From a virus, in IMG/VR virus record IMGVR_UViG_3300037151_000031, positions 1-58,512 of that record: DNA of 58,512 nucleotides, one strand, 5' to 3'. Below the pieces are notes generated by a model, which saw only the letters and a program-made list of their open reading frames with translations, was not told where the DNA came from and did not search any database. The position numbers were made by a program, and so were the translations under genes. Of the stretch, positions 7,627 through 24,738 are shown piece after piece; position 1 is the first letter of the stretch, and every line of letters begins with the position of its first letter.

Positions 7627-7881
7627 ATGAAGACGTTCGGTGAACGGGTGCGGGAGCGGCGTATGGCCAAGGGTCTGACGCTTCGAGCCGTCGGGGAGAA
7701 GATGGGCCTCAGCCTCACGTACATGCACGAGGTCGAGAAGGGTACCCGCGTGCTCGTCTATCAGCGCCTCCCCGAGCTCGCAGGCGCCCTCGACCTGCCC
7801 TTCGGTACAGTGCTCGACTGGGCAGGCCTGTGCAGGCAATGCCACGGCTCGGGGAAGTCTCACCTGGTGGCTGTGGCGTGA
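7627..7881 (+). CDS. Xre-family HTH regulator
   Basis: An 84-residue protein. ATG 7627 was selected because GGAGGAG lies 4-10 nt upstream; a longer frame from 7558 lacks such a site. The Xre helix-turn-helix spans residues 5-57 (RVRERRMAKGLTLRAVGEK and SLTYMHEVEKG). The C-terminus ends CRQCHGSGKSH, a possible metal-binding CxxCH. It overlaps the replication initiator gene by 4 nt. Confidence 0.75.
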   Translation: MKTFGERVRERRMAKGLTLRAVGEKMGLSLTYMHEVEKGTRVLVYQRLPELAGALDLPFGTVLDWAGLCRQCHGSGKSHLVAVA

Positions 7882-8840
7882 GCCTCCGCAACGGTCGGGC
7901 GGTCATCGTCGTTCGGGTGGGTGTGCACCTCCCTTCGCACCCTCGGATGCTCCGCGTGCCGAAGGGGAACGTCCGGGGCGCCGCCCTCGGCGCGTGGCTG
8001 ACGGCCAACTGTTACAGCCGGCTCGAGGAGTGCGACGGCTGGTGTCCAGCCGAAGCGCTCGACGGCGTGGCGACGGCCGATACCCTGCGGCGCCTGGTTG
8101 AGGTCGGGCTCTTTGAGGTTGCCGAGCGGGACGGCGTACACGGCTACATCGTCGTCCGATACGACGAGTTCAACGAGACAAAGGCGGAGATCGACTCGAG
8201 GCTCCTGGCGGACCGCCGCAGGAAGTCCGGCAAGGCTCCGTCTGGATTCCGTCCGGAATCCGATCGGAAGGTCAATGGCGTTCCGATGTCGGTCCGGGCG
8301 CCTTCCGATGAAATTCCCCCACCCACGCGCGCGGGCGCTGGTGATGGTGATGGTGATGGTGATGGTGATGGTGATGGTGATGGTGATGGTGATGGTGATG
8401 GTGATGGTGATCTCTCTCTGGGGGTCCAGGGGGGTCCGTTGCCAGCGGAACCCGCGCTGCCCGCCGGCATCGGGTTCTTCGGCGACGAGCGTCACTGGTT
8501 CCAATCCGCCGTGCGGGAGGCAACCGGCGAGCGGGAGTACGTGGCCCCCGCTCCGGCGAGGTGCGGCGGGTTGCTGGAGATCCTGAAGGCCCACGGCGAG
8601 CCGGACCACGACGCAGCGAAGGCGTGGCTCACGTCGAGCGTCGCGGCGTTCGTGGTCGCCACGGATGCCATGCGCAAGTTCTGGCCACTGACACCCGACA
8701 AATGGGTCGCGTGGGTGGGGCTAAAGTCGCCTTCGGCGGCGCAGCTGAACGCTCAAGAAAAGCGCGGCCCCGCCAAAATACGTGTGGTCCAAGGCGGCGA
8801 CGTTCCAGAGAAATTCTGGGAAGGGAAGGATCGGTTCTGA
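7878..8840 (+). CDS. Putative replication initiator with poly-(Gly-Asp) linker
   Basis: A 320-residue protein with a GTG start that overlaps the regulator stop (GTGA). The N-terminal ~120 residues resemble winged-helix phage replication proteins (LPSHPRMLRVPKGNVRGAA, then DTLRRLVEVGLFEVAERDG), as in DnaT/replisome-organiser N-domains. A central linker contains 12 Gly-Asp repeats encoded by a GGTGAT hexamer array. The C-terminal domain (AAKAWLTSSVAAF to VAWVGLKSP) precedes a DnaC-like loader gene, the usual initiator-loader order. Confidence 0.65.
   Translation: MSLRNGRAVIVVRVGVHLPSHPRMLRVPKGNVRGAALGAWLTANCYSRLEECDGWCPAEALDGVATADTLRRLVEVGLFEVAERDGVHGYIVVRYDEFNETKAEIDSRLLADRRRKSGKAPSGFRPESDRKVNGVPMSVRAPSDEIPPPTRAGAGDGDGDGDGDGDGDGDGDGDGDGDLSLGVQGGPLPAEPALPAGIGFFGDERHWFQSAVREATGEREYVAPAPARCGGLLEILKAHGEPDHDAAKAWLTSSVAAFVVATDAMRKFWPLTPDKWVAWVGLKSPSAAQLNAQEKRGPAKIRVVQGGDVPEKFWEGKDRF
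8340..8411 (+). repeat. (GGTGAT)12 hexanucleotide repeat inside the initiator gene
   Basis: Seventy-two nucleotides of perfect GGTGAT repeats, encoding 12 Gly-Asp dipeptides in the linker of the 7878-8840 protein. Because the unit is six nucleotides, slippage changes linker length but not frame. Confidence 0.95.
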
Positions 8841-12217: not shown

Positions 12218-12564
12218 GCGTCTTCGTTGTCCTTGACGGCAACTATCACCAGGAGCTTCCCGTGGCCGTGTGGTCGACCCTCGAGGCCGCAGAGGCACAC
12301 GTCCTCCGGCTCGACGCATCGCCAGAGAGCGTGAAGAACGGGCGGAATGCAATGATCCACGAGGTCCCGTTCAACGAAGATGCAGGGCCCATCCCGGACC
12401 TCGGCGAAGACTTACTTCTTCGACAGCTAGAGACCGTTGCACGACGGATCGCCTTTTGGGAGGCCGGCAGCAATGCCGACGCCGAGGAAATGCGCGTGAT
12501 CCTGTGTCGGATCGATCGATCGCGCGGTCATGCGTCAGGCGATGAGGGGACGCCATGCGCCTGA
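12214..12564 (+). CDS. Small hypothetical protein in glycan cassette
   Basis: A 116-residue protein. GTG 12214 has GGAGG upstream. The N-terminus (VFVVLDGNYHQELPVAVWS, then TLEAAEAHVLRLD) is a beta-strand pair followed by a helix that handles S-L-x-x-A-E; the same plan recurs in the proteins at 14005 and 15190. Overlaps the fucosyltransferase-like gene by 10 nt. Confidence 0.6.
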   Translation: MSVFVVLDGNYHQELPVAVWSTLEAAEAHVLRLDASPESVKNGRNAMIHEVPFNEDAGPIPDLGEDLLLRQLETVARRIAFWEAGSNADAEEMRVILCRIDRSRGHASGDEGTPCA

Positions 12565-13211
12565 ATTGTCTCGGCGGTCTCTGCAATCGCCTCCGTGCGT
12601 TGCTCTCCTACCGCGCTCTCCACGGCAGCATCGAAGCCATCTGGACGCCCGAGGACATGGTCAGTCACGCGGCCTTCCTCGACGTGTTCGAGCCACTGCA
12701 CGGCGTGACCTTCGTGGACGCCAATGGTGGCTGGGACGTCCAAGCGTGGGCGCCCGCTCCAGATGCACCCAAGGGCTGGGAGCTCGGCTATGCGGAGCTG
12801 AAGCCGGTCGCTGACGTGCGGCGGCGCATCGGCTGGGGCATGCCATACGACGCGGTCCACATCCGCCGCACCGACTACCTGCCGAACATGGCGAGCCTCG
12901 GCCAGGACGTGGAGCCGATCAATGCGTTCCTCGAGTGGGCGTCGATGTCGTCGCTGCTTTACGTGGCGACCGACAACGGGACGACTCAGCGGGCCGTGAA
13001 GGAAGCGCGGCAGCGGGATGGCCTTCGCACGTTCTGGGCGACGTCTCTCGACGGCTCCGACGAGCAGGGACTCGTCGACCATCGGAGAAACGGCACTCTC
13101 GCGGACGCCGTGGTCGATCTCTACATGTGCGTCGACGGCAACAAATTCATGGGAAGCACGGGGAGCTCGTTCAGTGACACGATCAACATTCTGCGAGGGT
13201 TGAAGCGATGA
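12555..13211 (+). CDS. Fucosyltransferase-like protein 1
   Basis: A 218-residue protein with the hallmarks of alpha-fucosyltransferases of the O-FucT/GT11/GT23 type: an N-terminal GGLCNRLRALLSY donor loop, the HxRR-x-D motif at residues 102-107 (VHIRRTDY), and a C-terminal MGSTGSSFSDTINILR block. These GT-B enzymes use GDP-fucose or related GDP-6-deoxyhexoses, matching the gmd gene downstream. The protein is shorter than typical family members. A paralogue lies at 14163. Confidence 0.7.
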   Translation: MRLNCLGGLCNRLRALLSYRALHGSIEAIWTPEDMVSHAAFLDVFEPLHGVTFVDANGGWDVQAWAPAPDAPKGWELGYAELKPVADVRRRIGWGMPYDAVHIRRTDYLPNMASLGQDVEPINAFLEWASMSSLLYVATDNGTTQRAVKEARQRDGLRTFWATSLDGSDEQGLVDHRRNGTLADAVVDLYMCVDGNKFMGSTGSSFSDTINILRGLKR

Positions 13212-14008
13212 CGAACGTTTTGGTCACATTCGGTGGAGTCGGTTACGACTGGACCGTCGAGCGCACACTCGCATTAGCGCCGTCGCGAGGCATCGATCGC
13301 GTCATGGTCTTCGATGACGTGTGGTTGGACCGTCATCCGTTTAGACAACTCAACAAGCACCTGTGGGAGACCAAGGACCAGCGTGGGTACGGATGGCATG
13401 CCTGGAAGGCGCTATTAGTATTTGAGGCGTTCAAAACGATGAGCGACGGCGACGTCTGTCTCTATGTCGACGCGGACACTTACCCCGCATCGGCTCCGTC
13501 GTTGCTCCCGCTCTTCGACTTGTGCAAGCGTGACGGGATCGTGTGTTTCGACTGCTCGGGTAGGCCGCACAATCACTGGTGCAAACGTGATTGCTACATC
13601 GTTATGGGGCAAGACGAGCCGAAGTACCACGAGAGTGCGGCTGGCTGCGCTCGGTTCGGGTTGTGGAAGAAGGGAGACTGGCGCGCGTTCCAGTTTCTTT
13701 GCGAGTTCCTGACCTATTCGGTGAACGTGTTCGCCAACACGCGAGAGAAGGATGGCGAGCGAGACGTGCCGAGCAAGCTAGGACCCGAGCTCCCCGAGTT
13801 CCAGACCGAGCGCGGCAGCGGCTATTGCGAGCATCGGACGGAGCAGGCGATCTACACGCTGCTCGCGCACAAGTACGGCATACCGTTGCAGCCCGAGGCG
13901 AGCGCGGGGAACTCGGCTGGCCAGGGGCTTTCGTATTTTGAGCAGTCTCACGAGACGCACTCCACGAATGGCGTCGGGTCCAAGTACAGAAATGTACCCA
14001 TGCCATGA
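13208..14008 (+). CDS. GT-A glycosyltransferase-like protein
   Basis: A 266-residue protein overlapping the previous gene by 4 nt. VCLYVDADTYP (about residues 83-93) is a DxD-containing donor site. The N-terminal VTFGGVGYDW and the GYGWHAWKALLV segment resemble capsule-type or galactosyl transferases in which the substrate protein or glycan binds near a Trp-rich loop. The acceptor is unknown. Confidence 0.65.
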   Translation: MTNVLVTFGGVGYDWTVERTLALAPSRGIDRVMVFDDVWLDRHPFRQLNKHLWETKDQRGYGWHAWKALLVFEAFKTMSDGDVCLYVDADTYPASAPSLLPLFDLCKRDGIVCFDCSGRPHNHWCKRDCYIVMGQDEPKYHESAAGCARFGLWKKGDWRAFQFLCEFLTYSVNVFANTREKDGERDVPSKLGPELPEFQTERGSGYCEHRTEQAIYTLLAHKYGIPLQPEASAGNSAGQGLSYFEQSHETHSTNGVGSKYRNVPMP

Positions 14009-14166
14009 AGCTCACTTACTTCATCCTTTGCCGTCAAGGCGAGCGGACGTGGTTGGTCGAGGCCTTATGGTGCGACTCGCTCGCGGATGCTGAGCGTCAA
14101 GCATCGATGCTGAATGATCGCTTTCCCGACGTTCACCATGAACCCCGTGTGGAGTTGGTTCGATGA
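14005..14166 (+). CDS. Very small hypothetical protein between transferases
   Basis: A 53-residue protein (MKLTYFILCRQG start), joined by 4-nt overlaps on both sides, which argues that it is translated. The sequence WLVEALWCDSLADAERQAS repeats the strand-helix plan of the 12214 and 15190 proteins. Function unknown. Confidence 0.6.
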   Translation: MKLTYFILCRQGERTWLVEALWCDSLADAERQASMLNDRFPDVHHEPRVELVR

Positions 14167-14972
14167 GGCGCCTCGTCCCCATCGGCGGTTTGTCCAATCG
14201 CCTACGGTCAATTTTGTCGGCCCGCGCCGCATGGGGCGAAGTCGAAGTCCTCTGGGCCTCGAGCGACGCTGTCAGCCACGGCAGCTTCACCGACGTGTTC
14301 GCCCCACTTGAGCGCGTGACGTTCCTACATGCTGGCGACGGCCACGCACACGAGTTGGATCTCGCGCAGTGGAAGTACGACAAGATGACCTCCAACCCGG
14401 TCGACGATGCGCCGGACGGATGGACGGAGGGGTACGCCGACCTTCGCCCGCTGCCTCACGTGCAGGCCCGCATCGACGAGCTCCGCGCCACGATGGGCGG
14501 CAGGTACGTGGCGATCCACGCGCGCAGGCTGGACCACGTCACGCACTCGGTGCCGTTCGGCCACTCCACGACGGACCAGGAGCTGCTGGATTGGCTGCAA
14601 GGCTGCACGCTGCCCGTCTACATCGCGACCGATGACCCGGTGACGCTGGAGTGGTTCAGGGCACGCATCCCGACGTCGTCGCACTGGCATCGCATGCCGG
14701 AGCGCGTGCACGGTTACGAGATCCGACCTGGCTCTCTTGCCGATGCCGTGGTCGACATGTTCGTTTGCGTGGGCGCAGTCGCGTTCATGGGCAGCTGGAT
14801 CTCCAGTTTCAGCGAGACCATCGACGTCCTCCGTTGCGGGGGAAAGCCGCCTGGCGGATTCGTCCCGCGTCTCCACATGCAGAGCGCAGACGCCGAGTGG
14901 TACCGGGGGCGCCAAGACAGAGCGGACGAGATGATCGCGACGCAACGAAGGGAGCGTGGGAAGTGTCCATGA
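14163..14972 (+). CDS. Fucosyltransferase-like protein 2
   Basis: A 269-residue paralogue of the 12555 protein. Shared features are GGLSNRLRSILSAR at the N-terminus, HARRLD at residues 119-124 in place of HIRRTD, and LADAVVDMFVCVGAVAFMG with SSFSETIDVLR at the C-terminus. It extends about 50 residues further. The Thr-to-Leu change within the HxRR-x-D motif may alter donor or acceptor choice. Confidence 0.7.
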   Translation: MRRLVPIGGLSNRLRSILSARAAWGEVEVLWASSDAVSHGSFTDVFAPLERVTFLHAGDGHAHELDLAQWKYDKMTSNPVDDAPDGWTEGYADLRPLPHVQARIDELRATMGGRYVAIHARRLDHVTHSVPFGHSTTDQELLDWLQGCTLPVYIATDDPVTLEWFRARIPTSSHWHRMPERVHGYEIRPGSLADAVVDMFVCVGAVAFMGSWISSFSETIDVLRCGGKPPGGFVPRLHMQSADAEWYRGRQDRADEMIATQRRERGKCP

Positions 14973-15193
14973 AATTCGATCGTGAGTGGGTCGAGCGCGT
15001 GGCTGGCCGCGGCGTCGAAGCCGAAAAGGGACTTGTGGGCGACGTCGTGTTCACCCACACGATCAGCGATCCGGACGTGCTGGCTATGGGCATCACGCAG
15101 AAAGGAATCGACATCATGAAACGGGTCAAGGAAGCCGAAGCACGCGGCGACCATGAGGCAGTGGAAGCCATCTGGGCGGAGGTCGGGCTATGA
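14963..15193 (+). CDS. Small hypothetical protein
   Basis: A 76-residue helical protein. GTG 14963 is favoured because GGAG lies 8 nt upstream; ATG 14969 is the alternative. It overlaps the transferase before it by 10 nt and the gene after it by 4 nt. No family recognised. Confidence 0.55.
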   Translation: MSMKFDREWVERVAGRGVEAEKGLVGDVVFTHTISDPDVLAMGITQKGIDIMKRVKEAEARGDHEAVEAIWAEVGL

Positions 15194-15396
15194 GCGGACG
15201 AGATCCGGAGGCTCTATCCTGCTACTGGCCGCACGAGAAGAAGCAGAGGAAGCCGTGGCTCGTGGTGTCAGTCCAAGAGGACTTGGACTTGGACTATGAC
15301 CACTTCGATACACAGGATGAAGCGCGATCGTTCGTGGATGTCCTCGATCGCAAGGCCTGCATCGTCGGCCCTGAGTCTGTGGAGGATCACACATGA
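15190..15396 (+). CDS. Small hypothetical protein
   Basis: A 68-residue acidic protein (WLVVSVQEDLDLDYDHFD core), with ATGA overlaps on both sides. Same strand-helix design as the 12214 and 14005 proteins. Function unknown. Confidence 0.55.
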   Translation: MSGRDPEALSCYWPHEKKQRKPWLVVSVQEDLDLDYDHFDTQDEARSFVDVLDRKACIVGPESVEDHT

Positions 15397-16154
15397 TCAC
15401 CGAAGAGCGAATCAACCAGGAGCTGCAGATCTTCTTCACCAACTCGGGGTTGCCCCCCGAGCCGATCATGTCGGATCTGACGATCGCTGCGGCACGCGAC
15501 ACGATCCCGCGGATGCTCGATGTGATGCTGGCCGCAACGCGGATGTCGTCGCCCGTGGTTCCGGTGCACGACTTCTCTCACCCATCATCGGCGGAACTAG
15601 GGGCTCTCTTCCACAAGTATCGGTCCGACAAGTCGACCCATCACAACTACCACATCCTCTACGCCAGCATCCTCGGGCCGCGACGCGATGAGCAGCTCGC
15701 GTTGCTCGAGATCGGTCTCGGCACCAACAACACGGACGTCGTCAGCAACATGGGAGTCGACGCCAAGCCGGGGTCATCGCTGCGTGCCTGGCGGGACTAC
15801 CTCCCCAAGGCCAGCATCTTCGGCGCGGACGTCGACAAGCGAGTGCTCTTCACGGAAGAGCGGATCCAGACGTTCTACGTGGACCAGACGCAGCCGCACA
15901 CGTTCGACGCGATGGGCATGCCGACGCTCGACATCGTCATCGACGACGGGCTGCACTCCACGCACGCAAACTTCGCGACCCTCGCGTGGGCGCTCGGCAA
16001 GGTGCGAGTCGGCGGCTGGATCGTGATCGAAGACATTCGCCAGAGCTCGCTGCCGGCGTGGCACATGATGGCGCTGGCACTGCCTCGAGGCAGATTCCGC
16101 TCGCAAGTGGTGTCCGCCGACCACGGGTTTCTTTTTGTAGTGGAGAAGACGTAA
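15393..16154 (+). CDS. Class I SAM-dependent methyltransferase (sugar/macrocin type)
   Basis: A 253-residue protein. Motif I is LLEIGLGTNN (about residues 105-114), then GSSLRAWRDYLPKASIFGADVD, and the motif IV/metal site DIVIDDGLHS (about 180-189), all typical of TylF/MycE-like O-methyltransferases that modify deoxysugars. In a glycan cassette it may cap a 6-deoxyhexose. The stop at 16154 is where the IS200/IS605 insertion begins. Confidence 0.75.
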   Translation: MITEERINQELQIFFTNSGLPPEPIMSDLTIAAARDTIPRMLDVMLAATRMSSPVVPVHDFSHPSSAELGALFHKYRSDKSTHHNYHILYASILGPRRDEQLALLEIGLGTNNTDVVSNMGVDAKPGSSLRAWRDYLPKASIFGADVDKRVLFTEERIQTFYVDQTQPHTFDAMGMPTLDIVIDDGLHSTHANFATLAWALGKVRVGGWIVIEDIRQSSLPAWHMMALALPRGRFRSQVVSADHGFLFVVEKT

Positions 16155-16161
16155 TCAAACC

Positions 16162-16177
16162 CCGCCCTAAAGGGCGG
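16162..16177. repeat. Subterminal hairpin at the tnpB-side end
   Basis: CCGCCC-TAAA-GGGCGG perfect stem-loop containing the tnpB stop codon. In IS605-type elements this end encodes the 3' part of the TnpB guide RNA (omega RNA), transcribed here leftward, with the guide read from the flanking DNA just left of 16155. Confidence 0.7.
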
Positions 16178-17372
16178 AGCTTTCGGAGAGAGGACGACGT
16201 GGGACACGCAATCCAATCCGTTTCCTGTTTCGCAGGGTGCCCAACTTCGGCGAGCCCTCCGCAGGCAGTCCCGAGCGATTCGCACGGGCAAGTAGAACCT
16301 TCGCAGCATTGAGGTCCGCATGGTCCGAGAAACCACACGAGGTACAAGCGAACGACGACTGCGACCGACGCGACATTGCGTTCACGGCGCCGCACTCGCT
16401 GCACGTCTGCGAGCTGTACGCGGCGGGCACCTCGACGAGCGAGCCTCCCGACCACGCGAGCTTGTAGCGGAGCATGTCCGCGAAGCGGGACCATCCCGCG
16501 TCCGCGATGCTGCGAGCGCAGCGACCTCGAGTCATTCCCGCGACGTTCAGTTTCTCCAGCACAACGACGCCGTGGCTCTTGGTGAGTTGTGCAGACTGGA
16601 CGTGCAGGAAGTGGTCGCGCTGCCGCCTCACCTTGCGGTGGATGCGGGCGACGCGAGCCTTGGCCTTCTCTCTGTTCTTGGAACCTTTCTTCCGTCGACT
16701 GACGGTGCGTTGTGCGTGAGCGAGTCTCGTGAGCGAGGCTTCGAGGTGGCGCGGGTTGGCGATCATGTCGCCGTCGGAGGTCGCGCCGAAGTTCGCGATG
16801 CCGCGGTCGATCGCGACGACGGGACCTTCGCGCAGAGTGGGCTCGGCGAGGTTCAGCTCGCAGACGATCGAGACGAACCACTGATCCCCATCGCGATTGA
16901 GGGAGCACGTCTTCGGCTTCCCTTCGAGCGGTCGGTGCATCACTGTTCGGAGCGTGCCCAGCTTGGGGAAGCGGACGTCCGAGCCGTCGACTCTCCACGC
17001 CTTCGGGTGCGGCTCGCAGAAGCCGAGAGAGTCGCGGCCCCTCCGCTTCCACCGAGGGGCGCGAGCCAACTTGGCGAAGCAGCGTTGCCATGCTCGGTCC
17101 AGCTCGACCAAGAGCTGCGAGCACACGTTGCGAGGCACATCGGCAAGCCACGGGAGCGCAGCGCGGAGTTCGGTCAGTTCGTTGATCTGGTCGAATGCCG
17201 TGGGGTAGCGGCGCTCGTCTCGGGGACGAGCAAGCCCGAGCTTCCGCTGTTCGAGTGCAATGTTCCAGAGGAAGCGCAGCGCGCTCTCCCACGCGTCGAG
17301 GCGGGCGACCTGCTCGGGCGTCGGGTAGACGCGGAAGCGAAAGGCTTTGCTCGTCCTCACCCGGCAAAGCAT
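16167..17372 (-). CDS. tnpB: TnpB RNA-guided nuclease
   Basis: About 400 residues. An upstream in-frame ATG at 17384 exists; 17372 better matches the usual M-x-K-A-F-x-F-R-x-Y-P-T-P-E-Q start. Numbering from 17384, the RuvC residues are D193 (AIDRGIANFG), E277 (VVLEKLNVAGM) and D357 (DHADLNAAK). The zinc finger is C328/C331 and C347/C350. All are present, so nuclease function should be retained. TnpB with its omega RNA cleaves DNA next to the TAM and helps keep the element at donor sites. Confidence 0.88.
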   Translation of the reverse strand: MLCRVRTSKAFRFRVYPTPEQVARLDAWESALRFLWNIALEQRKLGLARPRDERRYPTAFDQINELTELRAALPWLADVPRNVCSQLLVELDRAWQRCFAKLARAPRWKRRGRDSLGFCEPHPKAWRVDGSDVRFPKLGTLRTVMHRPLEGKPKTCSLNRDGDQWFVSIVCELNLAEPTLREGPVVAIDRGIANFGATSDGDMIANPRHLEASLTRLAHAQRTVSRRKKGSKNREKAKARVARIHRKVRRQRDHFLHVQSAQLTKSHGVVVLEKLNVAGMTRGRCARSIADAGWSRFADMLRYKLAWSGGSLVEVPAAYSSQTCSECGAVNAMSRRSQSSFACTSCGFSDHADLNAAKVLLARANRSGLPAEGSPKLGTLRNRKRIGLRVPRRPLSESSAL

Positions 17373-17382
17373 ACTTGGTCTC

Positions 17383-17814
17383 ATGCCTCACGCAAGCGAC
17401 TTTCGGACGGGCAGACACGTTGTATACGCGTTGACGGTTCACTTGGTCTTCGTCACCAAGTACCGACGCAAGGCCATCACCGAGAGGGTCTTCGACGTGC
17501 TCAAGGCCTCGTGGGAGGCCACTTGCGTGCAGTTCGAGTGCGAGCTTCGGGAGGTTGGCTGGGAGCACGACCACGCCCACCTGCTCGTTGGCTTCCCGCC
17601 GAAAGTCTCGTTGTCGACGCTCGTCAACTCGCTCAAGGGCGGGTCGGCTCATCGCCTTCGGCAGCACAAGTTCCCCGAGGTCACGTCGAAGCTCTGGGGT
17701 CGACACTTCTGGAGTCCAAGCTACTGCGCAGTGTCGTGCGGGGGTGCCCCGCTCGAGATCGTCAAACGCTATGTGGAGGCGCAACGCGGAGACGGCGCTT
17801 CCTCCCCGGCTTGA
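17383..17814 (+). CDS. tnpA: TnpA Y1 (HUH) transposase
   Basis: A 143-residue protein of normal family size. The HUH motif is H64-A-H66 in WEHDHAHLLVGF, and the catalytic tyrosine is Y130 in IVKRYVEAQ. The N-terminal VYALTVHLVFVTKYRRK is the signature first strand. Y1 transposases excise and insert single-stranded DNA at the lagging strand. The start faces tnpB with almost no gap. The stop lies inside the end hairpin. Confidence 0.88.
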   Translation: MPHASDFRTGRHVVYALTVHLVFVTKYRRKAITERVFDVLKASWEATCVQFECELREVGWEHDHAHLLVGFPPKVSLSTLVNSLKGGSAHRLRQHKFPEVTSKLWGRHFWSPSYCAVSCGGAPLEIVKRYVEAQRGDGASSPA

Positions 17815-17823
17815 AAGCCGGGG
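17804..17823. repeat. Subterminal hairpin at the tnpA-side end
   Basis: Perfect stem CCCCGGCTT-GA-AAGCCGGGG overlapping the tnpA stop. Such imperfectly palindromic ends are what TnpA recognises; the cleavage site should lie a short distance outside, near 17835. Confidence 0.75.
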
Positions 17824-17842
17824 GTTTCCGCGCCGGTGAACG

Positions 17843-18802
17843 ATGAAAGCCATGATCACCGGCATCACTGGGCAGGATGGTTCCTATCTCGCCGAGTTCC
17901 TTCTCGAGAAAGGGTACGAAGTCCACGGCATCGTGCGGCGATCATCTTCATTCAATACTGGTCGAATCGACCACATCTACGAGCGGATCAAACTCCATTA
18001 TGGTGATCTTGCCGACTCGACGTCGTTACGCGCGGTCCTCGATGAAGTTCAGCCTGATGAAATCTACAATCTCGCGGCCCAGTCGCATGTTCGCGTGTCC
18101 TTCGACGTGCCCGAGTACACCGCCGACATTACGGCGGTCGGCACGCTGCGTCTTCTCGACGCCATGCGTCGCAGTGGGTCCAGAGCCAGGTTCTACCAGG
18201 CGAGTTCGTCCGAGATGTTCGGTAACGCTCCAGGACCGCAGTCTGAATCCACGCAGTTTCAGCCAGCGAGCCCATACGCGGTTGCGAAGACCTTCGCCTA
18301 CTACACGACGGTCAATTATCGAGATGCGTATCAGATGAACGTCTTCAACGGCATCCTCTTCAACCACGAGAGCCCACGACGCGGCGAGACGTTCGTCACG
18401 CGCAAGATCACGCGCGCGTTCGGGCGCATCAAGCACGGACTTCAAAAGACGCTCACGCTTGGCAATTTGGATGCGTCACGTGACTGGGGCCACGCCAAGG
18501 ATTATGTGCGCGCAATGTGGATGATGCTCCAGGGTGTCCCGCGCGACTATGTCATCGCGACGGGGCGTGCTTATTCGGTGAGATCGTTCCTCGATATTGC
18601 GGCAGAGCGCGCTGGAATCGATTGGCACGAGCACGTGCATCTCGATGCCCGACTCGTTCGACCGAAGGAGGTTGTTTGGCTGTGTGGCGATGCCAGACGT
18701 GCGAAGGACGAGCTTGGATGGAGCCCGTCGATCGAGTTTCGTCAGCTCGTCAACGAGATGGTCGACTCTGACATGAAGCTGGCAGCGGCGGAGGCGGCAT
18801 GA
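17843..18802 (+). CDS. gmd: GDP-mannose 4,6-dehydratase
   Basis: A 319-residue short-chain dehydrogenase/reductase. The NADP-binding motif [10 protein letters not shown] is at residues 7-16; the active site SSSEMFG (121-127) and Y145-x3-K149 (PYAVAKT) are complete. SFNTGRIDH and [17 protein letters not shown] are GMD-specific. It converts GDP-mannose to GDP-4-keto-6-deoxymannose, precursor of GDP-fucose, GDP-rhamnose and GDP-perosamine. No downstream epimerase-reductase is seen, so the host must finish the sugar or the transferases use the keto sugar or GDP-rhamnose. Confidence 0.92.
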
Positions 18803-18978
18803 CCATCGCTTTCGCGCACGTCCTCTGCCCGGACTGCTTCAAGCGGCTCTGGCCCAACGGGCATGAAGAGAAGTCATGCGCGCACGGGTTCATGGCGGTC
18901 GCCTGTGTCGAGTGCGGCAAGGCACGCAAGCTCGGCGAGAAACCATACTGGCCATGCCTGGGAACGAGGGAGCCATGA
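18799..18978 (+). CDS. Small zinc-ribbon protein
   Basis: A 59-residue protein beginning [10 protein letters not shown]. Two pairs, CPDC and CVEC, plus an intervening C-x-H are fit for zinc binding. Four-nucleotide overlaps with both neighbours support it. Confidence 0.6.
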
Positions 18979-19808
18979 CCGTCGATATCATGATCGCGCA
19001 CGCCGCCTTCGACGTACGGCGGCACGCGCCGTTGACAAGACTGCTCGTCGCACTGGGCGGTCACCCGCTCGTCCTGGCGAGTCAGGAGCGCGTCCACGCG
19101 AACGTGTGGGCGACCGCGCTCTGGAATGCCGTGGCGAGATCGAAGGCCGACACGGTCGTATGCCTGAACGACGACGTCATCCCGCACCCGCAGTTGCGGC
19201 AGCACGTAACGACGCTCGCGGAACTCCTGCCCGACCAGGTGCTGTCGCTGCATCCGCAGTTCCCCGCGATACGAGACGTGGCCAAGGCCGGAGGACGGCT
19301 CGCACGCTGCTACTGGCCGACGGGCCCCGCCATGGCCATGTCCCCAGACTTCGCGCGCGAGCTGCTCGAGTGGCTCAAGACCGTGCCGGAAGGCTGGTTC
19401 GGGAATGACGTGAACGAGGATGGTGCCCTTGCGTCTTTCCTGTGGAGCCGACAGCAGCCCGCGTGGTGCGCGATTCCCGCGCTCGTAAGGCACGACACGA
19501 CGGTGCCGAGCACGCTCCCGGGGTATGACCAGCATCCGCATCGGACCTCGCCGGTGGACTGGGATGACTACCCGCCCCACTGGACCCGCGAGCACGTCGC
19601 CAGCGCTCCGTACACCCCCGTGCCATGGATCTCAGACGACGGGCTACGCAAGCTCGGAGACTCCCTCCGCGGGGTCAGCAAGATGTGCGTGCTGTGCGGC
19701 GCGTATCCAGCCCATCTCTTTCACAAGCGAGGCACCGGACTCTGCGAAGTCTGCGTCCGGAGCCTCATCTTTGCAGCGAAACAGCAGCCCCGCATGGAGG
19801 CACCGTGA
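18975..19808 (+). CDS. Glycosyltransferase-like protein with C-terminal zinc finger
   Basis: A 277-residue protein. The N-terminal two thirds is GT-A-like: VDIMIAHAAFDVRRHAPL, then CLNDDVIPHP (about residues 62-71) in the position of a DxD. The last 60 residues add CVLCGAYPAHLF and GLCEVCVRS, a CxxC-x(n)-CxxC zinc ribbon not normally found on these enzymes. It could anchor the enzyme to a partner or nucleic acid. Confidence 0.6.
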   Translation: MTVDIMIAHAAFDVRRHAPLTRLLVALGGHPLVLASQERVHANVWATALWNAVARSKADTVVCLNDDVIPHPQLRQHVTTLAELLPDQVLSLHPQFPAIRDVAKAGGRLARCYWPTGPAMAMSPDFARELLEWLKTVPEGWFGNDVNEDGALASFLWSRQQPAWCAIPALVRHDTTVPSTLPGYDQHPHRTSPVDWDDYPPHWTREHVASAPYTPVPWISDDGLRKLGDSLRGVSKMCVLCGAYPAHLFHKRGTGLCEVCVRSLIFAAKQQPRMEAP

Positions 19809-20727: not shown

Positions 20728-20953
20728 GACGTGTCCGATGTGCAAGGGTCAGCGGCTCGTTCTCCGAGACATCGGCGAAGGCCGGAAGAAGCAGACGCAG
20801 TGCAGCCAGTGCCTCGGCATCGGCCAGGTCCACGACCCGAACGCAGCCGAGATCTACAAGGCCGCCGTCGCCGACGTCGAGCGCTGCGAGCAGGAACTCG
20901 CCGGCGCCAGGCTGCGGCTCGAGACCGCGGCGGAAGCGGTGAAGCGTGAGTGA
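20717..20953 (+). CDS. DnaJ-type zinc-ribbon protein
   Basis: A 78-residue protein with CPMCKGQR at residues 6-13 and CSQCLGIGQV at about 32-41, a DnaJ-like CxxCxG pair, then a helical tail. It ends 8 nt before the first repeat array, and its last codons (GTGAGTGA) resemble block B of that array. Role unknown. Confidence 0.65.
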   Translation: MASKTCPMCKGQRLVLRDIGEGRKKQTQCSQCLGIGQVHDPNAAEIYKAAVADVERCEQELAGARLRLETAAEAVKRE

Positions 20954-20961
20954 AGCTAACG

Positions 20962-21503
20962 CAGTGAATACGAGGCGGCCACAACGAGCGATTGAGCAGC
21001 AGTGAAAACGAAAGCGGACCAACGAGCGACTTCTGCGCAGTGAAAACGAGCGAACCAGAGCGAGCGAAGCCACAACAGTGAATGCGAACGTTCAACAGCG
21101 AGCGATCACCGGCCAGTAAAAACGACGAAAGCACAGCGAGCGAAGGTTCCCCAGTGAAACGAGAGCCCGACAGCGAGCGAGATCGAGAACCAGTGAAAAC
21201 GAGAGTGCTCCAACGAGCGAGTCTTGTGCAGTGAAAACGAAGAAGATGCAGCGAGCGAAGATAAGAGAACGAGAGCGATAAGAAGACAGCGAGCGACCGT
21301 GCCGCAGTGAAACGAGACGGAAGCAACGAGCGAAGCACCGCCAACGAAGAGACAGGACCTCAGCGAGCGAGCAGCAGTGAAAACGACGAAGGAGTAGCGA
21401 GCGAGCCTCGTGCAGTGGAAACGACGAAGGAGCAGCGAAGAAGCTGACAGCGTGCGAAAGCTTTGCAGTGAACGCGAAGGTAGAGCAGCGAGCGCACACA
21501 CCA
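20962..21503. repeat. Two-block, two-spacer 38-bp repeat array A (14 units)
   Basis: Non-coding region of about 565 nt. The unit is CAGTGAAAACGA (block A), a variable 8-mer, CAGCGAGCGA (block B), another variable 8-mer: 38 bp. Units begin at 20962, 21000, 21038, 21076, 21114, 21152, 21191, 21229, 21267, 21305, 21342, 21375, 21413 and 21466; most steps are exactly 38. Both blocks fit CAGYGA...CGA, so the array alternates two related half-sites. First spacers are purine-rich, second spacers mixed. The last unit runs into the ribosome-binding site of the next gene. Units 9, 11 and 13 are degenerate or altered. Confidence 0.93.
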
Positions 21504-21518
21504 CCAGGAGAGCGAAAC

Positions 21519-22028
21519 ATGGCGAACCAAGCAGATGTGATTCCGATGGGCCGGCTTGCAGAATCGGCGACACGCATCAAGGCCGCGATGAGGGCAGGCG
21601 ACACCGGCTACGCGATGATCGCGCACGAGGTCGTCAGCATCGAGCAACGATGGGACATCCTGAAGGGAGAGGCCGAAGGGCGGTCCATCCATCGATGGAT
21701 CAAGGAAGAGATCGGCACGAAGGACCTGGCGTGGTGGCGGCGTCTCGCGAGTGGCGTGACGCGCCTGTCCAGGCATGTCGCGGCGCACTTCTCGACGCAG
21801 GCGATCTTCTGGCTGACGCAGAGCGTGCCAGAGCGCTACCTCGACGAGGTGCGTGACGCTTCGCTCGCGCTGCAACGACGCGAGAAGCAGCCTTCGCCCG
21901 TGACGCTCGCCCAGGCGAAGCGGATGGGGAAGACGATCCTGCCAGCCCACCCGAAGGTCGACGGCTGCGCAGACTGCGAGGCCCTCCGCGCACAGGTGCG
22001 GGAGATGGGGGGCGAACCGAGAGTGTGA
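21519..22028 (+). CDS. Hypothetical protein framed by the repeat arrays
   Basis: A 169-residue protein. ATG 21519 is preceded by AGGAGAG. It is helical throughout: TRIKAAMRAGDTGYAMIAHE, IHRWIKEEIGTKDLAWWRRL, then LSRHVAAHFSTQAIFWLTQ, with a Cys pair (CADC) near the C-terminus. The Trp/Arg-rich middle looks capable of binding nucleic acid. Because array A precedes it and array B follows it immediately, it is a candidate array-binding protein. I do not recognise a family. Confidence 0.65.
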   Translation: MANQADVIPMGRLAESATRIKAAMRAGDTGYAMIAHEVVSIEQRWDILKGEAEGRSIHRWIKEEIGTKDLAWWRRLASGVTRLSRHVAAHFSTQAIFWLTQSVPERYLDEVRDASLALQRREKQPSPVTLAQAKRMGKTILPAHPKVDGCADCEALRAQVREMGGEPRV

Positions 22029-22036
22029 AAATTGAC

Positions 22037-22290
22037 CAGTGAATACGAGGCGGCCACAACGAGCGATCGAGCAGCAGTGAAAACGACGAAGGACCAGCGA
22101 GCGACCGCAGAACAGTGAAAACGAAGAAGACGCAGCGAGCGATTCATGCGCAGCGAATGCGAAGTGCGGGCAGCGAGCGAGGTTCGCCCAGTGAAAACGA
22201 GTCTGAGACAGCGAGCGCGCATGCGAAGAATGCACAGCGCGCGATACTCCTAGAGTGAAGACGACGATGTAGCAGCGAGTGACCCACCAC
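22037..22290. repeat. Two-block, two-spacer 38-bp repeat array B (7 units)
   Basis: Same unit as array A. Units begin at 22037, 22075, 22113, 22151, 22189, about 22215 (5' truncated) and 22253. The first unit matches the first unit of array A at 37 of 38 positions, spacers included, while later spacers mostly differ. The array begins exactly 8 nt after the preceding stop codon, as array A does, and ends at the ribosome-binding site of the transposase-domain gene. Confidence 0.93.
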
Positions 22291-22309: not shown

Positions 22310-23440
22310 ATGAGCATCGAAGAAGCAGTGAACATGCTGGCCCCGAAGAAGCGAACGCGGGTCGCGCGAAAGGTGATGCCGGACGCGCCGGTGATTCCCG
22401 TGCATGAGGAGCCTCGCAAGGAGCTGCGACGTCTCGTCGGCATGCACGCACGGTGGACCCGTGAAGCGCGGACCTTCGGGCAGATGGTCGGGCCGATCCC
22501 GATCTTCCCCTCCGATGGCAAGCCGGTCATCGAGAAGGGGAAGCTTCCGAAACGTCCGACGGACAAGGACCCGGTCACCGTCGTTGCCATCAAGGCGGCG
22601 CAGAAGCAGCTCCAGCATGCCGCGGGCGAACTGGAGAAGGCGATGGTCGCCGAACTGAAGAAGCTTCCCGTCTTCAATCTCTTCCTCGACCGCGTCTACG
22701 GCATCGGCCCGGTCGTCGCTGCATACATCGCGGCAAACGTGGACATCAGCCGCGCGTGGCAGCCCAGCAAGCTGGCGAGATACTTCGGCAACACCCCAGG
22801 GCCATCGGGCCGCATGGAGCGAAGGGTCGCGGGTAGCGCGCCGAAGTATGCGCCGAACGGAGAACTCGACAGCGCGCGCGGCGGCTCCCCCAACGACACG
22901 ATGAGGACCATCCTCTGGCAGGGCATGGTCGCGATGCGAAAGAACTCGGCCAAGTTCACCAGGTGCGCAGCGCACGATGCAGCCTGGGGCGAACTGAAGC
23001 CAGCCGACAGAGCAGCCTTCCGTCGCGAGAAGTGCGCAGAGTGCCCCGAGTGCGCGAAGACCGCCTCCCCGTTCGGCCAGACGTCGAAGTACCTGGATCG
23101 CTGGGCAGAGTCACTCCACGCGAGCCGGACCATGCCGTACGTGAACCCAGACGGGAAGCCGACGAACATCGACAAGAAGGGCCGCATGAAGGCGGCCGAC
23201 GTCTTCATTCACGACCTCTACATGATCATGCGCGCCATCGACGGGCTCGACGTTTTCCCGACGTATGCGACCGTGAAGCGAGATCGAGAGCATGGGATGA
23301 ACGGCCCAGTGAACAACGGCCAAGGCGCCAAGATGTCCGTCGACGAAGCTCTCGCCATGATCGGCGAGGTGGGCAAGCGGCCAGCCACCCGCTTCATGTT
23401 TGATGCCGATGTGGAAGAGGAGGATGGCGATGACGAGTAA
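22310..23440 (+). CDS. IS110-type transposase C-terminal-domain protein (no DEDD domain)
   Basis: A 376-residue protein with AAAGGA upstream. Residues 34-120 resemble the coiled-coil linker of IS110 recombinases. Residues 125-210 carry the Transposase_20 signature: VYGIGPVVAAYIAANVDIS (helix-hairpin-helix), LARYFGNTPGPSG with S166 at the position of the catalytic serine, and DTMRTILWQ. A Cys-rich insertion (C219, C242, C245, C248) follows, then a YLDRWAESLH and AADVFIHDLYMIMRAI end. The N-terminal DEDD RuvC-like domain is absent and no IS ends are visible, so it looks domesticated rather than a transposon. Confidence 0.75.
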   Translation: MSIEEAVNMLAPKKRTRVARKVMPDAPVIPVHEEPRKELRRLVGMHARWTREARTFGQMVGPIPIFPSDGKPVIEKGKLPKRPTDKDPVTVVAIKAAQKQLQHAAGELEKAMVAELKKLPVFNLFLDRVYGIGPVVAAYIAANVDISRAWQPSKLARYFGNTPGPSGRMERRVAGSAPKYAPNGELDSARGGSPNDTMRTILWQGMVAMRKNSAKFTRCAAHDAAWGELKPADRAAFRREKCAECPECAKTASPFGQTSKYLDRWAESLHASRTMPYVNPDGKPTNIDKKGRMKAADVFIHDLYMIMRAIDGLDVFPTYATVKRDREHGMNGPVNNGQGAKMSVDEALAMIGEVGKRPATRFMFDADVEEEDGDDE

Positions 23441-23819
23441 GCGAAAGCCAGTGCGGACGTTGACATGCCGACTCTGCGGGGAGCGCAAGGTAAGTGCCAG
23501 TGAAGGTCCGTGCGCCTCGTGCCAGGAATTGGGAAGCTTCCGGAGCGCTACCCATGACGCGTGCCGCATGGCGGCGCTATACAAGATGTACCTGGACTCG
23601 TATCGAGGATGGAGTCCTGGGACTACACACGTCGAGGAGTCGATCGCCTGTGCTCTGGGCGTGATGTATTCGCGCCGTGATAAGCACAGGGGAGCGGTTC
23701 TTCTGCCAGAGGACCTGGTCGCCAGGGTCGACCAGGCATTGCCGAAGGCGCCTCTCGCCCGTCTCGCGTGCATTCGTGGCAGCTATGAGAAAGCGAAGGC
23801 GGAGCCAAGTGACGGCTGA
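23430..23819 (+). CDS. Zinc-ribbon protein
   Basis: A 129-residue protein; ATG 23430 overlaps the stop of the gene before by 11 nt. CRLCGERK and CASCQEL form a zinc ribbon at residues 10-33. The rest is alpha-helical (HDACRMAALYKMYLDSYRG). Function unknown; located in the array-associated operon. Confidence 0.6.
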   Translation: MTSKRKPVRTLTCRLCGERKVSASEGPCASCQELGSFRSATHDACRMAALYKMYLDSYRGWSPGTTHVEESIACALGVMYSRRDKHRGAVLLPEDLVARVDQALPKAPLARLACIRGSYEKAKAEPSDG

Positions 23820-24738
23820 AGTCGGGAAGTGGAATCCGCAGCTTCACGCCGAGTACAGAGCAATGCCAGAGGGCAGCCGAAAGCGTGCGCTCGCTGGGAG
23901 GATCATTCGAGAGAATGAGCCGCTAATCAAGACGATCGTGAATCAACTCATCAATAAAGGCGCGCCGACCACTCGCAGGAAGAGCGCCGCCGCACGCATG
24001 GGAGGTTGCCAAGGACTAGGCGAAATTGAATGGGAAGACGCAATGCAAGCGGGCCGAATTGCGATGCTGAAAGCGATCGGTAGTTTCGATCCATCGAAAG
24101 GAAAGATCGCTTTCCACTTCCTGATGCAGGTGCGGTACCAGTTACAAAAAATCGAGACGTTCGAGCTCCACCTTGCCCGGAGCCCGCAGGGCAAGGCGGA
24201 CCAGCGGCCGAAGCTCGGGTTGGTCGGGATGCCTGCGACGAGCGAGGAGCACTCGGCGAGCTCGACGGAGTGGGGGTACGTGAACGCGACGACGGACCTG
24301 GGGGAGATGCTGCCGAGCATGACGCCGACGGGGTCGCATGATCGGCTCGGGGTCGTCGCCGAGGGGGTCGACTGGGTCGGGGGCGTGGAGGGGGTGACGC
24401 CGGAGCTCTTGGCGGAGTGGGAGGAGACCGGGGAGTGGCCGGACAGCGTCGAGGCCTTCGTCGAGGCGAGGAAGCCGGCGGTCGTCTACAGCATCCCGAA
24501 GCCGGCGTTGACCGGGTGGAGTCTGTTCCTGGGCAAGGTGAAGCTCGCGGTGTCGGGGCGAGTGGGCGCGGCGAAGGCGTTTCAGGTCTACGCCATGGGG
24601 TGCGCGGAGCTCGGGGAGCGCTGGCTACCAAGAGCGGCCTTCTTCAAGGCTCTCGAGCCGAAGCTGGTCAGGCAGATCACGATCGGAAGCGGCTACAAGT
24701 CAGAGAAGGGGCTGGCAGGTCTTAGGCTGGTCGCGTGA
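23809..24738 (+). CDS. Sigma-70 region-2-like protein with winged-helix-like C-terminus
   Basis: A 309-residue protein. GTG 23809 was chosen because GGAG precedes it and a longer frame overlaps the preceding gene heavily. Residues 20-110 resemble sigma region 2: LAGRIIRENEPLIKTIVNQL, then WEDAMQAGRIAMLKAIGSFD and IAFHFLMQVRYQLQKIE. No region 4 is obvious. The C-terminal 90 residues (LFLGKVKLAVSGRVGAAKA to KSEKGLAGLRL) look like the DNA-binding tail found on D5-type primases. It may direct host RNA polymerase to late promoters. Confidence 0.62.
   Translation: MTAEVGKWNPQLHAEYRAMPEGSRKRALAGRIIRENEPLIKTIVNQLINKGAPTTRRKSAAARMGGCQGLGEIEWEDAMQAGRIAMLKAIGSFDPSKGKIAFHFLMQVRYQLQKIETFELHLARSPQGKADQRPKLGLVGMPATSEEHSASSTEWGYVNATTDLGEMLPSMTPTGSHDRLGVVAEGVDWVGGVEGVTPELLAEWEETGEWPDSVEAFVEARKPAVVYSIPKPALTGWSLFLGKVKLAVSGRVGAAKAFQVYAMGCAELGERWLPRAAFFKALEPKLVRQITIGSGYKSEKGLAGLRLVA

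What the first reader, a model, noticed from the sequence alone, without database searches (positions are those of the whole stretch)
20962..22290. Two non-coding arrays of a two-block, two-spacer 38-bp repeat next to an IS110-domain protein
Twenty-one units of CAGTGAAAACGA-N8-CAGCGAGCGA-N8 lie in two intergenic regions around one small gene and directly upstream of a Transposase_20-domain protein. The lengths of both spacers are fixed at 8 nt in most units while their sequences vary, so the register, not the spacer sequence, is conserved. Both blocks fit CAGYGA...CGA. The blocks are not palindromic and do not pair with each other, so this is not CRISPR, REP or an inverted-repeat hairpin. IS110 recombinases use non-coding bridge RNAs with short variable guide loops; an array with two alternating variable 8-mers per unit is therefore a tempting analogue, but protein-binding sites (partition, replication or regulatory iterons) explain the data equally well.
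Basis: partly seen in the sequence, partly recalled or inferred. Interest (0 to 1): 0.93.

Follow-up and report, generated by a model that had tools for sequence, protein, structure and literature searches.

The report
Phage TIGR guide-RNA arrays beside TasA
This phage carries two arrays of short paired guide sequences next to the gene for an RNA-binding protein; they match the recently described TIGR-Tas RNA-guided DNA-targeting systems, so the arrays are probably cut into small RNAs that lead the protein to chosen DNA sites, not protein-binding sites on DNA.

Summary
On the + strand, 20 copies of CAGTGAAAACGA alternate with 21 copies of CARCGAGCGA, separated by variable 8-nt spacers, in two intergenic arrays (20951-21495 and 22026-22282). 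The neighbour (22310-23440) is not an IS110 transposase. It is a divergent TIGR-associated (Tas) protein: NCBIfam TIGR_Tas_endo E=1.4e-12 against IS110 1.1e-6; best PDB match TasR 9mty, E=7.7e-6. It has no detectable HNH, RuvC or DEDD domain, so it fits TasA (solo Nop domain). Salicola phage CGphi29, the published TasH system, carries a relative and an array with the same 8/8 spacer anatomy; its edge repeat AAGCGAGCCA corresponds to CAGCGAGCGA here. A degenerate DNA scan that used no protein information found one further array in IMG/VR, directly behind a homologue of the same protein. Across both arrays the 12-nt repeat shows compensatory changes (G-C/A-U, U-A/C-G; 0 of 500 shuffles), so it works as RNA. 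Predicted mechanism: 38-nt tigRNAs guide TasA to 16-bp DNA targets, spacer A on one strand and spacer B on the other. Targets are unknown; none in this contig exceeds chance. It is a new, divergent member of a family first described in 2025.

The parts
20951..21495 (+). TIGR array 1: begins with the stop codon of the gene before, which stands in the place of the first box C (truncated edge GAGTGA at 20948-20953), then 14 loop repeats alternating with edge repeats, 8-nt spacers
22026..22282 (+). TIGR array 2: the stop codon of gene 21519-22028 stands in the place of the first box C; 6 loop repeats alternating with edge repeats, 8-nt spacers; ends 27 nt before the tasA start
22310..23440 (+). 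tasA-like gene, 376 aa: coiled coil about 33-117 and Nop-type C-terminal domain about 120-323 inferred from alignment; insertion at about 217-252 with C-x3-H and C-x2-C-x2-C (possible zinc site); no detectable nuclease domain
   Evidence: NCBIfam NF052498 E=1.4e-12; PDB 9mty E=7.7e-6; profile-profile with phage Tas proteins E=2.1e-9
21519..22028 (+). 169-aa protein of unknown function, helical in a low-confidence model, between the two arrays; same position as TasParB in published tasParB-tasA operons, but no detectable ParB similarity
   Evidence: position rule from PMC12045711
20987..21024 (+). one predicted 38-nt tigRNA (mid-edge to mid-edge): AGCGA-TTGAGCAG-CAGTGAAAACGA-AAGCGGAC-CAACG; cut position inferred by analogy
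   Evidence: sequence and processing rule of PMC12045711; inference
21000..21011 (+). representative loop repeat CAGTGAAAACGA: box D (AG), G-C and U-A pairs closing GAAA, box C (CGA)
21096..21105 (+). representative edge repeat CAGCGAGCGA: box D (AG), extra C-G pair, box C (CGA)

Best explanation
This is a dual-repeat TIGR-Tas system of the TasA (nuclease-less) kind. The arrays lie in the leaders of two genes in a + strand gene run with no detectable terminator between them. They are transcribed with that run and probably cut in the middle of each edge repeat into 38-nt tigRNAs: half edge, spacer A, loop repeat, spacer B, half edge. A dimer of the 376-aa Nop protein would hold one tigRNA, one protomer on the edge boxes and the other on the loop boxes. 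Spacer A (8 nt) then pairs with one strand of a DNA target and spacer B with the other, without a PAM. Lacking a nuclease, the complex would act by binding and bending DNA, most likely blocking transcription or replication of competing phages or plasmids or of host DNA. Shown here: array anatomy, RNA-level covariation, protein family, association with the protein in relatives. Inferred from the published systems: transcription, processing, dimer, two-strand targeting. Unknown: the targets.
For: Protein: TIGR_Tas_endo 48 bits against IS110 28 bits; phrog_4285, the PHROG that holds the phage Tas proteins; 9mty TasR as best PDB hit; profile-profile E=2.1e-9 against six phage proteins of that family. 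Array: two alternating repeats of 10 and 12 nt with 8-nt spacers and no conserved spacer sequence. Parsed the same way, the Salicola array is 10/8/10/8 and the Microcystis phage Mvi-JY20 array 9/9/9/9, both next to Tas genes, with edge repeats sharing GCGAGC. Box C changed from CCA to CGA in both repeat types together: position 11 of all 17 twelve-nt loops and position 9 of all 21 edges are G, as a symmetric dimer requires. Covariation of the loop hairpin with the IMG/VR relative: 96.4% paired, 9 double changes, 0/500 shuffles, best of all slid registers. Association: a pattern scan without protein information hit IMGVR_UViG_3300043777_000306, whose array starts directly after a 44%-identical tas homologue. 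Arrays begin with 5'-truncated and end with 3'-degenerate edge repeats, as published.
Against: The protein scores below NCBI's curated cut-off (48 against 100 bits). Its structure could not be modelled with confidence (pLDDT 37). No terminator follows the arrays, although published arrays typically end in one. Edge position 3 is A in 5 of 21 copies, which breaks the expected box C/D pair in three predicted tigRNAs. Several units are irregular. No transcript data and no identified target. The covariation rests on one relative plus within-array variation.
Confidence: 0.93

Rival explanations
1. DNA-level iterons: each half-unit is a binding site for a partition, replication or regulatory protein (such as the 169-aa product), and the spacers are neutral.
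For: Fixed spacing, non-coding location, directly upstream of two genes; a helical protein of unknown function lies between the arrays.
Against: Compensatory changes inside the 12-nt repeat indicate RNA pairing; the same anatomy recurs next to Tas proteins in other phages; the neighbour belongs to an RNA-guided family; the phage replication protein (7830-8840) is 12 kb away.
Confidence: 0.04
2. IS110 transposon remnant with a bridge RNA: the protein is a decayed IS110 recombinase and the array a degenerate set of bridge-RNA loops.
For: Sub-threshold Transposase_20 hit; the Nop-type domain is shared with IS110 (PMC12045711).
Against: No DEDD domain is detected and only about 90 residues precede the domain; the Tas model scores 20 bits higher; an array of 20 guide pairs is not a single bridge RNA; IS110 transposases on plasmids match only at E=0.2 or worse.
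Confidence: 0.01
3. A TIGR-derived system repurposed as an mRNA leader regulator: the arrays regulate the two genes they precede, and guide function is secondary or lost.
For: Arrays fill the 5' leaders of both genes with no terminator; several units are damaged; spacer duplicates and spacer-B composition suggest internal copying more than acquisition from outside.
Against: Spacers are diverse and kept at exactly 8 nt, and the repeats remain intact in most units; in the IMG/VR relative the array lies after the gene, not in its leader.
Confidence: 0.02

Closest known systems
SpTIGR-TasH of Salicola phage CGphi29 (PMC12045711; NC_020844)
   Same: Array of two alternating repeats with 8-nt spacers A and B; edge repeat AAGCGAGCCA against CAGCGAGCGA; Tas relative (22% identity over the aligned part, BLASTP E=6e-7); phage-borne
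   Different: Salicola protein carries an N-terminal HNH nuclease and this one shows none; loop repeat 10 nt (AAGACAACCA) against 12 nt; box C CCA against CGA; array after the gene and followed by a terminator-like hairpin with a T run
FpTIGR-TasA and other TasA loci (PMC12045711)
   Same: Nop protein without nuclease next to dual-repeat arrays; arrays may lie upstream, downstream or between two genes
   Different: Published arrays most often have 5-15 units; here 20 units in two arrays, 38-nt units, and an unrelated co-gene in the place where some loci have TasParB
Microcystis phage Mvi-JY20 locus (PP438412, annotated only as hypothetical protein)
   Same: Tas protein with dual-repeat array; edge repeat ATGCGAGCC(A)
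   Different: 9/9/9/9 anatomy, CCA-type box C, array after the gene
IS110 recombinase with bridge RNA
   Same: Related RNA-binding domain; paired short guides
   Different: No DEDD domain, no single bridge RNA; this system is an array

Membership tests
TIGR-Tas (dual-repeat) | Array of two distinct alternating 8-12 nt repeats with short (8-12 nt) variable spacers | tested here: met
   12/8/10/8 nt
TIGR-Tas (dual-repeat) | Array adjacent to a gene for a Nop-domain Tas protein | tested here: met
   Array 2 ends 27 nt before the gene; family; the Nop fold itself was not modelled
[quoted passage not shown]
   Both repeats have A[G/A] at the box D place and CGA at the box C place; CCA in Salicola and Microcystis
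TIGR-Tas (dual-repeat) | Score above the curated cut-off of NCBIfam NF052498 | tested here: not met
   48 against 100 bits, E=1.4e-12; the cut-off is the model's naming rule, not a defining feature of the family's biology
TIGR-Tas (dual-repeat) | 5'-truncated first and 3'-truncated last edge repeat (typical) | tested here: met
TIGR-Tas (dual-repeat) | Terminator after the array (typical, not essential) | tested here: not met
   none on the + strand between 20953 and 22310
TIGR-Tas (dual-repeat) | Processing into about 36-nt tigRNAs bound by the Tas protein | not testable with these tools
   needs RNA sequencing
TIGR-Tas (dual-repeat) | Tandem-spacer DNA targeting | tested here: inconclusive
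   no target in this contig above chance; host and rivals unknown
TasA subtype | No HNH or RuvC nuclease domain | tested here: met
   no Pfam or NCBIfam nuclease-domain hit; about 90 residues precede the matched Nop part
IS110 transposase | DEDD domain plus Transposase_20 domain above threshold | tested here: not met
CRISPR | One repeat of about 25-36 nt, long spacers, cas genes | tested here: not met
   repeats 10/12 nt, spacers 8 nt; no Cas-related hit among the proteins scanned
tasParB-tasA operon | ParB-like partner protein | tested here: inconclusive
   21519-22028 product has no family hit and no usable fold match

The most novel reading that the evidence does not exclude
A separate branch of TIGR-TasA in tailed phages: box C is CGA (or the stop codon UGA of the gene before), the loop repeat is a true mini-hairpin with mostly GNRA-like tetraloops, the guide arrays are built into the leaders of an operon, and an unknown helical protein works with TasA as a nuclease-free, RNA-guided silencer of competing DNA.
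Probability: 0.25. Interest if true: 0.75.

Novelty: new member of a known kind. Interest (0 to 1): 0.55.

Why it matters
TIGR-Tas systems were first described in 2025 and their natural role and targets are open. TasA, the commonest and probably ancestral form, has no known function. A phage with 20 guide pairs, a divergent TasA that the curated model does not name, duplicated units that record how an array grows, and a covarying loop hairpin adds a test case. It also indicates that many phage 'transposases' of phrog_4285 are Tas proteins.

Tried and rejected
Relatives of the Tas protein, the 169-aa protein, the terminase and the tail sheath in viral contigs: none. Tas protein in genome contigs, alone and with its relative: none. 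Exact array pattern in viral contigs: none; the degenerate pattern gave five hits, of which the four others (L013, L015, L016, L017) are single chance-like matches without an array. Further relatives of the IMG/VR homologue: only itself. Structure of the Tas protein without an alignment: pLDDT 37, unusable; of the 169-aa protein: pLDDT 59, no fold match. Self-targets: 16-nt A+rc(B) and rc(A)+B sites with gaps 0-2 reach 14 of 16 matches at most, as often as with re-paired spacers. 8-mers alone are too short to be informative. Rfam and tRNA scans: nothing. DNA similarity of array 1 to phages: none.

Full report
Observation. The two arrays were re-read from the sequence and segmented. Twelve-nt repeats (CAGTGAAAACGA; 17 copies plus three of 11 nt) alternate with ten-nt repeats (CARCGAGCGA; 21 copies), separated by 8-nt spacers. 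Over 16 units the repeats carry 1.5-1.6 bits per column and the spacers 0.06-0.18. Nothing like it occurs elsewhere in the window or on the other strand, and the composite pattern is never seen in shuffles. The window is a virus record of 58,512 bp without end repeats, encoding a contractile-tail phage: terminase, protease, major head protein, sheath, tape measure, baseplate, RecT-like protein.

The neighbour. NCBIfam gives TIGR_Tas_endo at 1.4e-12 over residues 90-305, clearly above IS110 at 1.1e-6. PHROGs gives phrog_4285, to which the other phage Tas proteins also belong. The best PDB sequence match is 9mty, which in the paper library is cited only in the TIGR-Tas paper PMC12045711. The best tblastn hit among 50,697 phage records, weak at E=3, was Salicola phage CGphi29, which that paper uses as its TasH example. 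Pairwise E is 6e-7, and profile-profile against six phage Tas proteins gives 2.1e-9 over 192 columns. No nuclease domain is detected, so it fits TasA.

Comparison of arrays. [quoted passage not shown] repeats are 8-12 nt; spacers are 9 nt, or 8 in the Salicola system; tigRNAs run from mid-edge to mid-edge; box D at the start and box C at the end of each repeat are bound by the two protomers and covary between the repeats. Parsed the same way, Salicola shows AAGCGAGCCA / 8 / AAGACAACCA / 8, and Microcystis phage Mvi-JY20 shows ATGCGAGCC / 9 / ACGAAACCC / 9. By the shared GCGAGC core and by the array ends, CARCGAGCGA is the edge repeat here and CAGTGAAAACGA the loop repeat. Box C is CGA in both repeat types instead of CCA.

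RNA evidence. In the loop repeat, positions 3-10 and 4-9 pair and close a four-base loop, GAAA in most copies. Within the window the 4-9 pair is U-A, U-G or C-G in all 20 loops (p=0.009). A pattern scan that used only the DNA found one more array, in the 4,992-bp contig IMGVR_UViG_3300043777_000306 (L014 = L018), directly after a gene whose product is 44% identical to the Tas protein. Its loops include CAGCGAAAGCGA and CAACGAAAGTGA, i.e. G-C replaced by A-U and U-A by C-G. Together: 96.4% paired, nine cells with double changes, 0 of 500 shuffles as good, and no slid register comes close. This is hard to explain by protein-binding sites on DNA. The terminase of that contig shows no detectable similarity to that of the window, so the module probably occurs on different phage backbones.

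Details. All three array starts (two in the window, one in L018) have the same form: the stop codon TGA of the gene before, eight nt, then the first loop repeat. The stop codon therefore stands in the place of the first box C. The last edge repeats are degenerate at their 3' ends (GCGC, GTGA), as expected if only the 5' half is used. Spacers repeat: GGCGGCCA opens both arrays; CGAAGGAG occurs twice and CGAAGGAC once; AGAAGATG and AGAAGACG differ by one base. Unit 2 of array 2 matches unit 12 of array 1 in both spacers apart from a short deletion and one base. Arrays thus grow at least partly by copying units. Spacer B is purine-rich (5.6 of 8) and spacer A is not (3.9 of 8; p=0.001; not seen in Salicola); this is unexplained.

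Function. No site in the contig matches a spacer pair better than re-paired controls, so the guides probably look outward, at host or competing DNA. Transcription, processing, dimerisation and two-strand targeting are inferred from the published systems. The 169-aa protein between the arrays stands where some tasA loci have TasParB, but it resembles nothing detectable.

Limits. The paper's supplementary tables could not be read, so whether this very contig was already listed among the published metagenomic TIGR loci is unknown. The protein fold was not modelled, and only one relative of this branch was found.

Verdict. A new, divergent member of the TIGR-TasA kind; the identification is firm, the role open.

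Noticed in passing
L012 (Mycobacterium phage Pinto) 2345-2680; L009 (Gordonia phage Morrissey) 2460-2740; L011 (Rhodococcus phage Peregrin) 2360-2805: Genes annotated 'transposase' or hypothetical (phrog_4285; Tas family at 1e-60 or better) are preceded by rows of inverted repeats mostly about 30-44 nt apart, as in the published stem-loop TIGR arrays; 66 Mycobacterium phage records hold relatives of Salicola TasH.
   Followed up: partly
L008 3687-4006 (Microcystis phage Mvi-JY20): Clear dual-repeat TIGR array after a Tas gene annotated only as hypothetical protein; the record annotates a small reverse-strand CDS inside the array.
   Followed up: partly
20951-22282: Spacer B is purine-rich and T-poor while spacer A is not (p=0.001); not seen in the Salicola array.
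   Followed up: partly
77-255 and 666-718: ACCCGT hexamer repeats near the left end, inside two reverse-strand reading frames and read there as YG/SG/DG or RV repeats.
   Followed up: no
8339-8411: TGGTGA x12 encoding a GD repeat in the protein 7830-8840, which matches phage replication initiation families.
   Followed up: no
23677-24738: Protein with a weak sigma-70 region 2 match (E=2e-4, below cut-off) just after the tas gene.
   Followed up: no
12555-19808: Cluster of sugar genes: GDP-mannose dehydratase, two proteins with weak O-fucosyltransferase matches, a glucosyltransferase-like protein and a methyltransferase.
   Followed up: no
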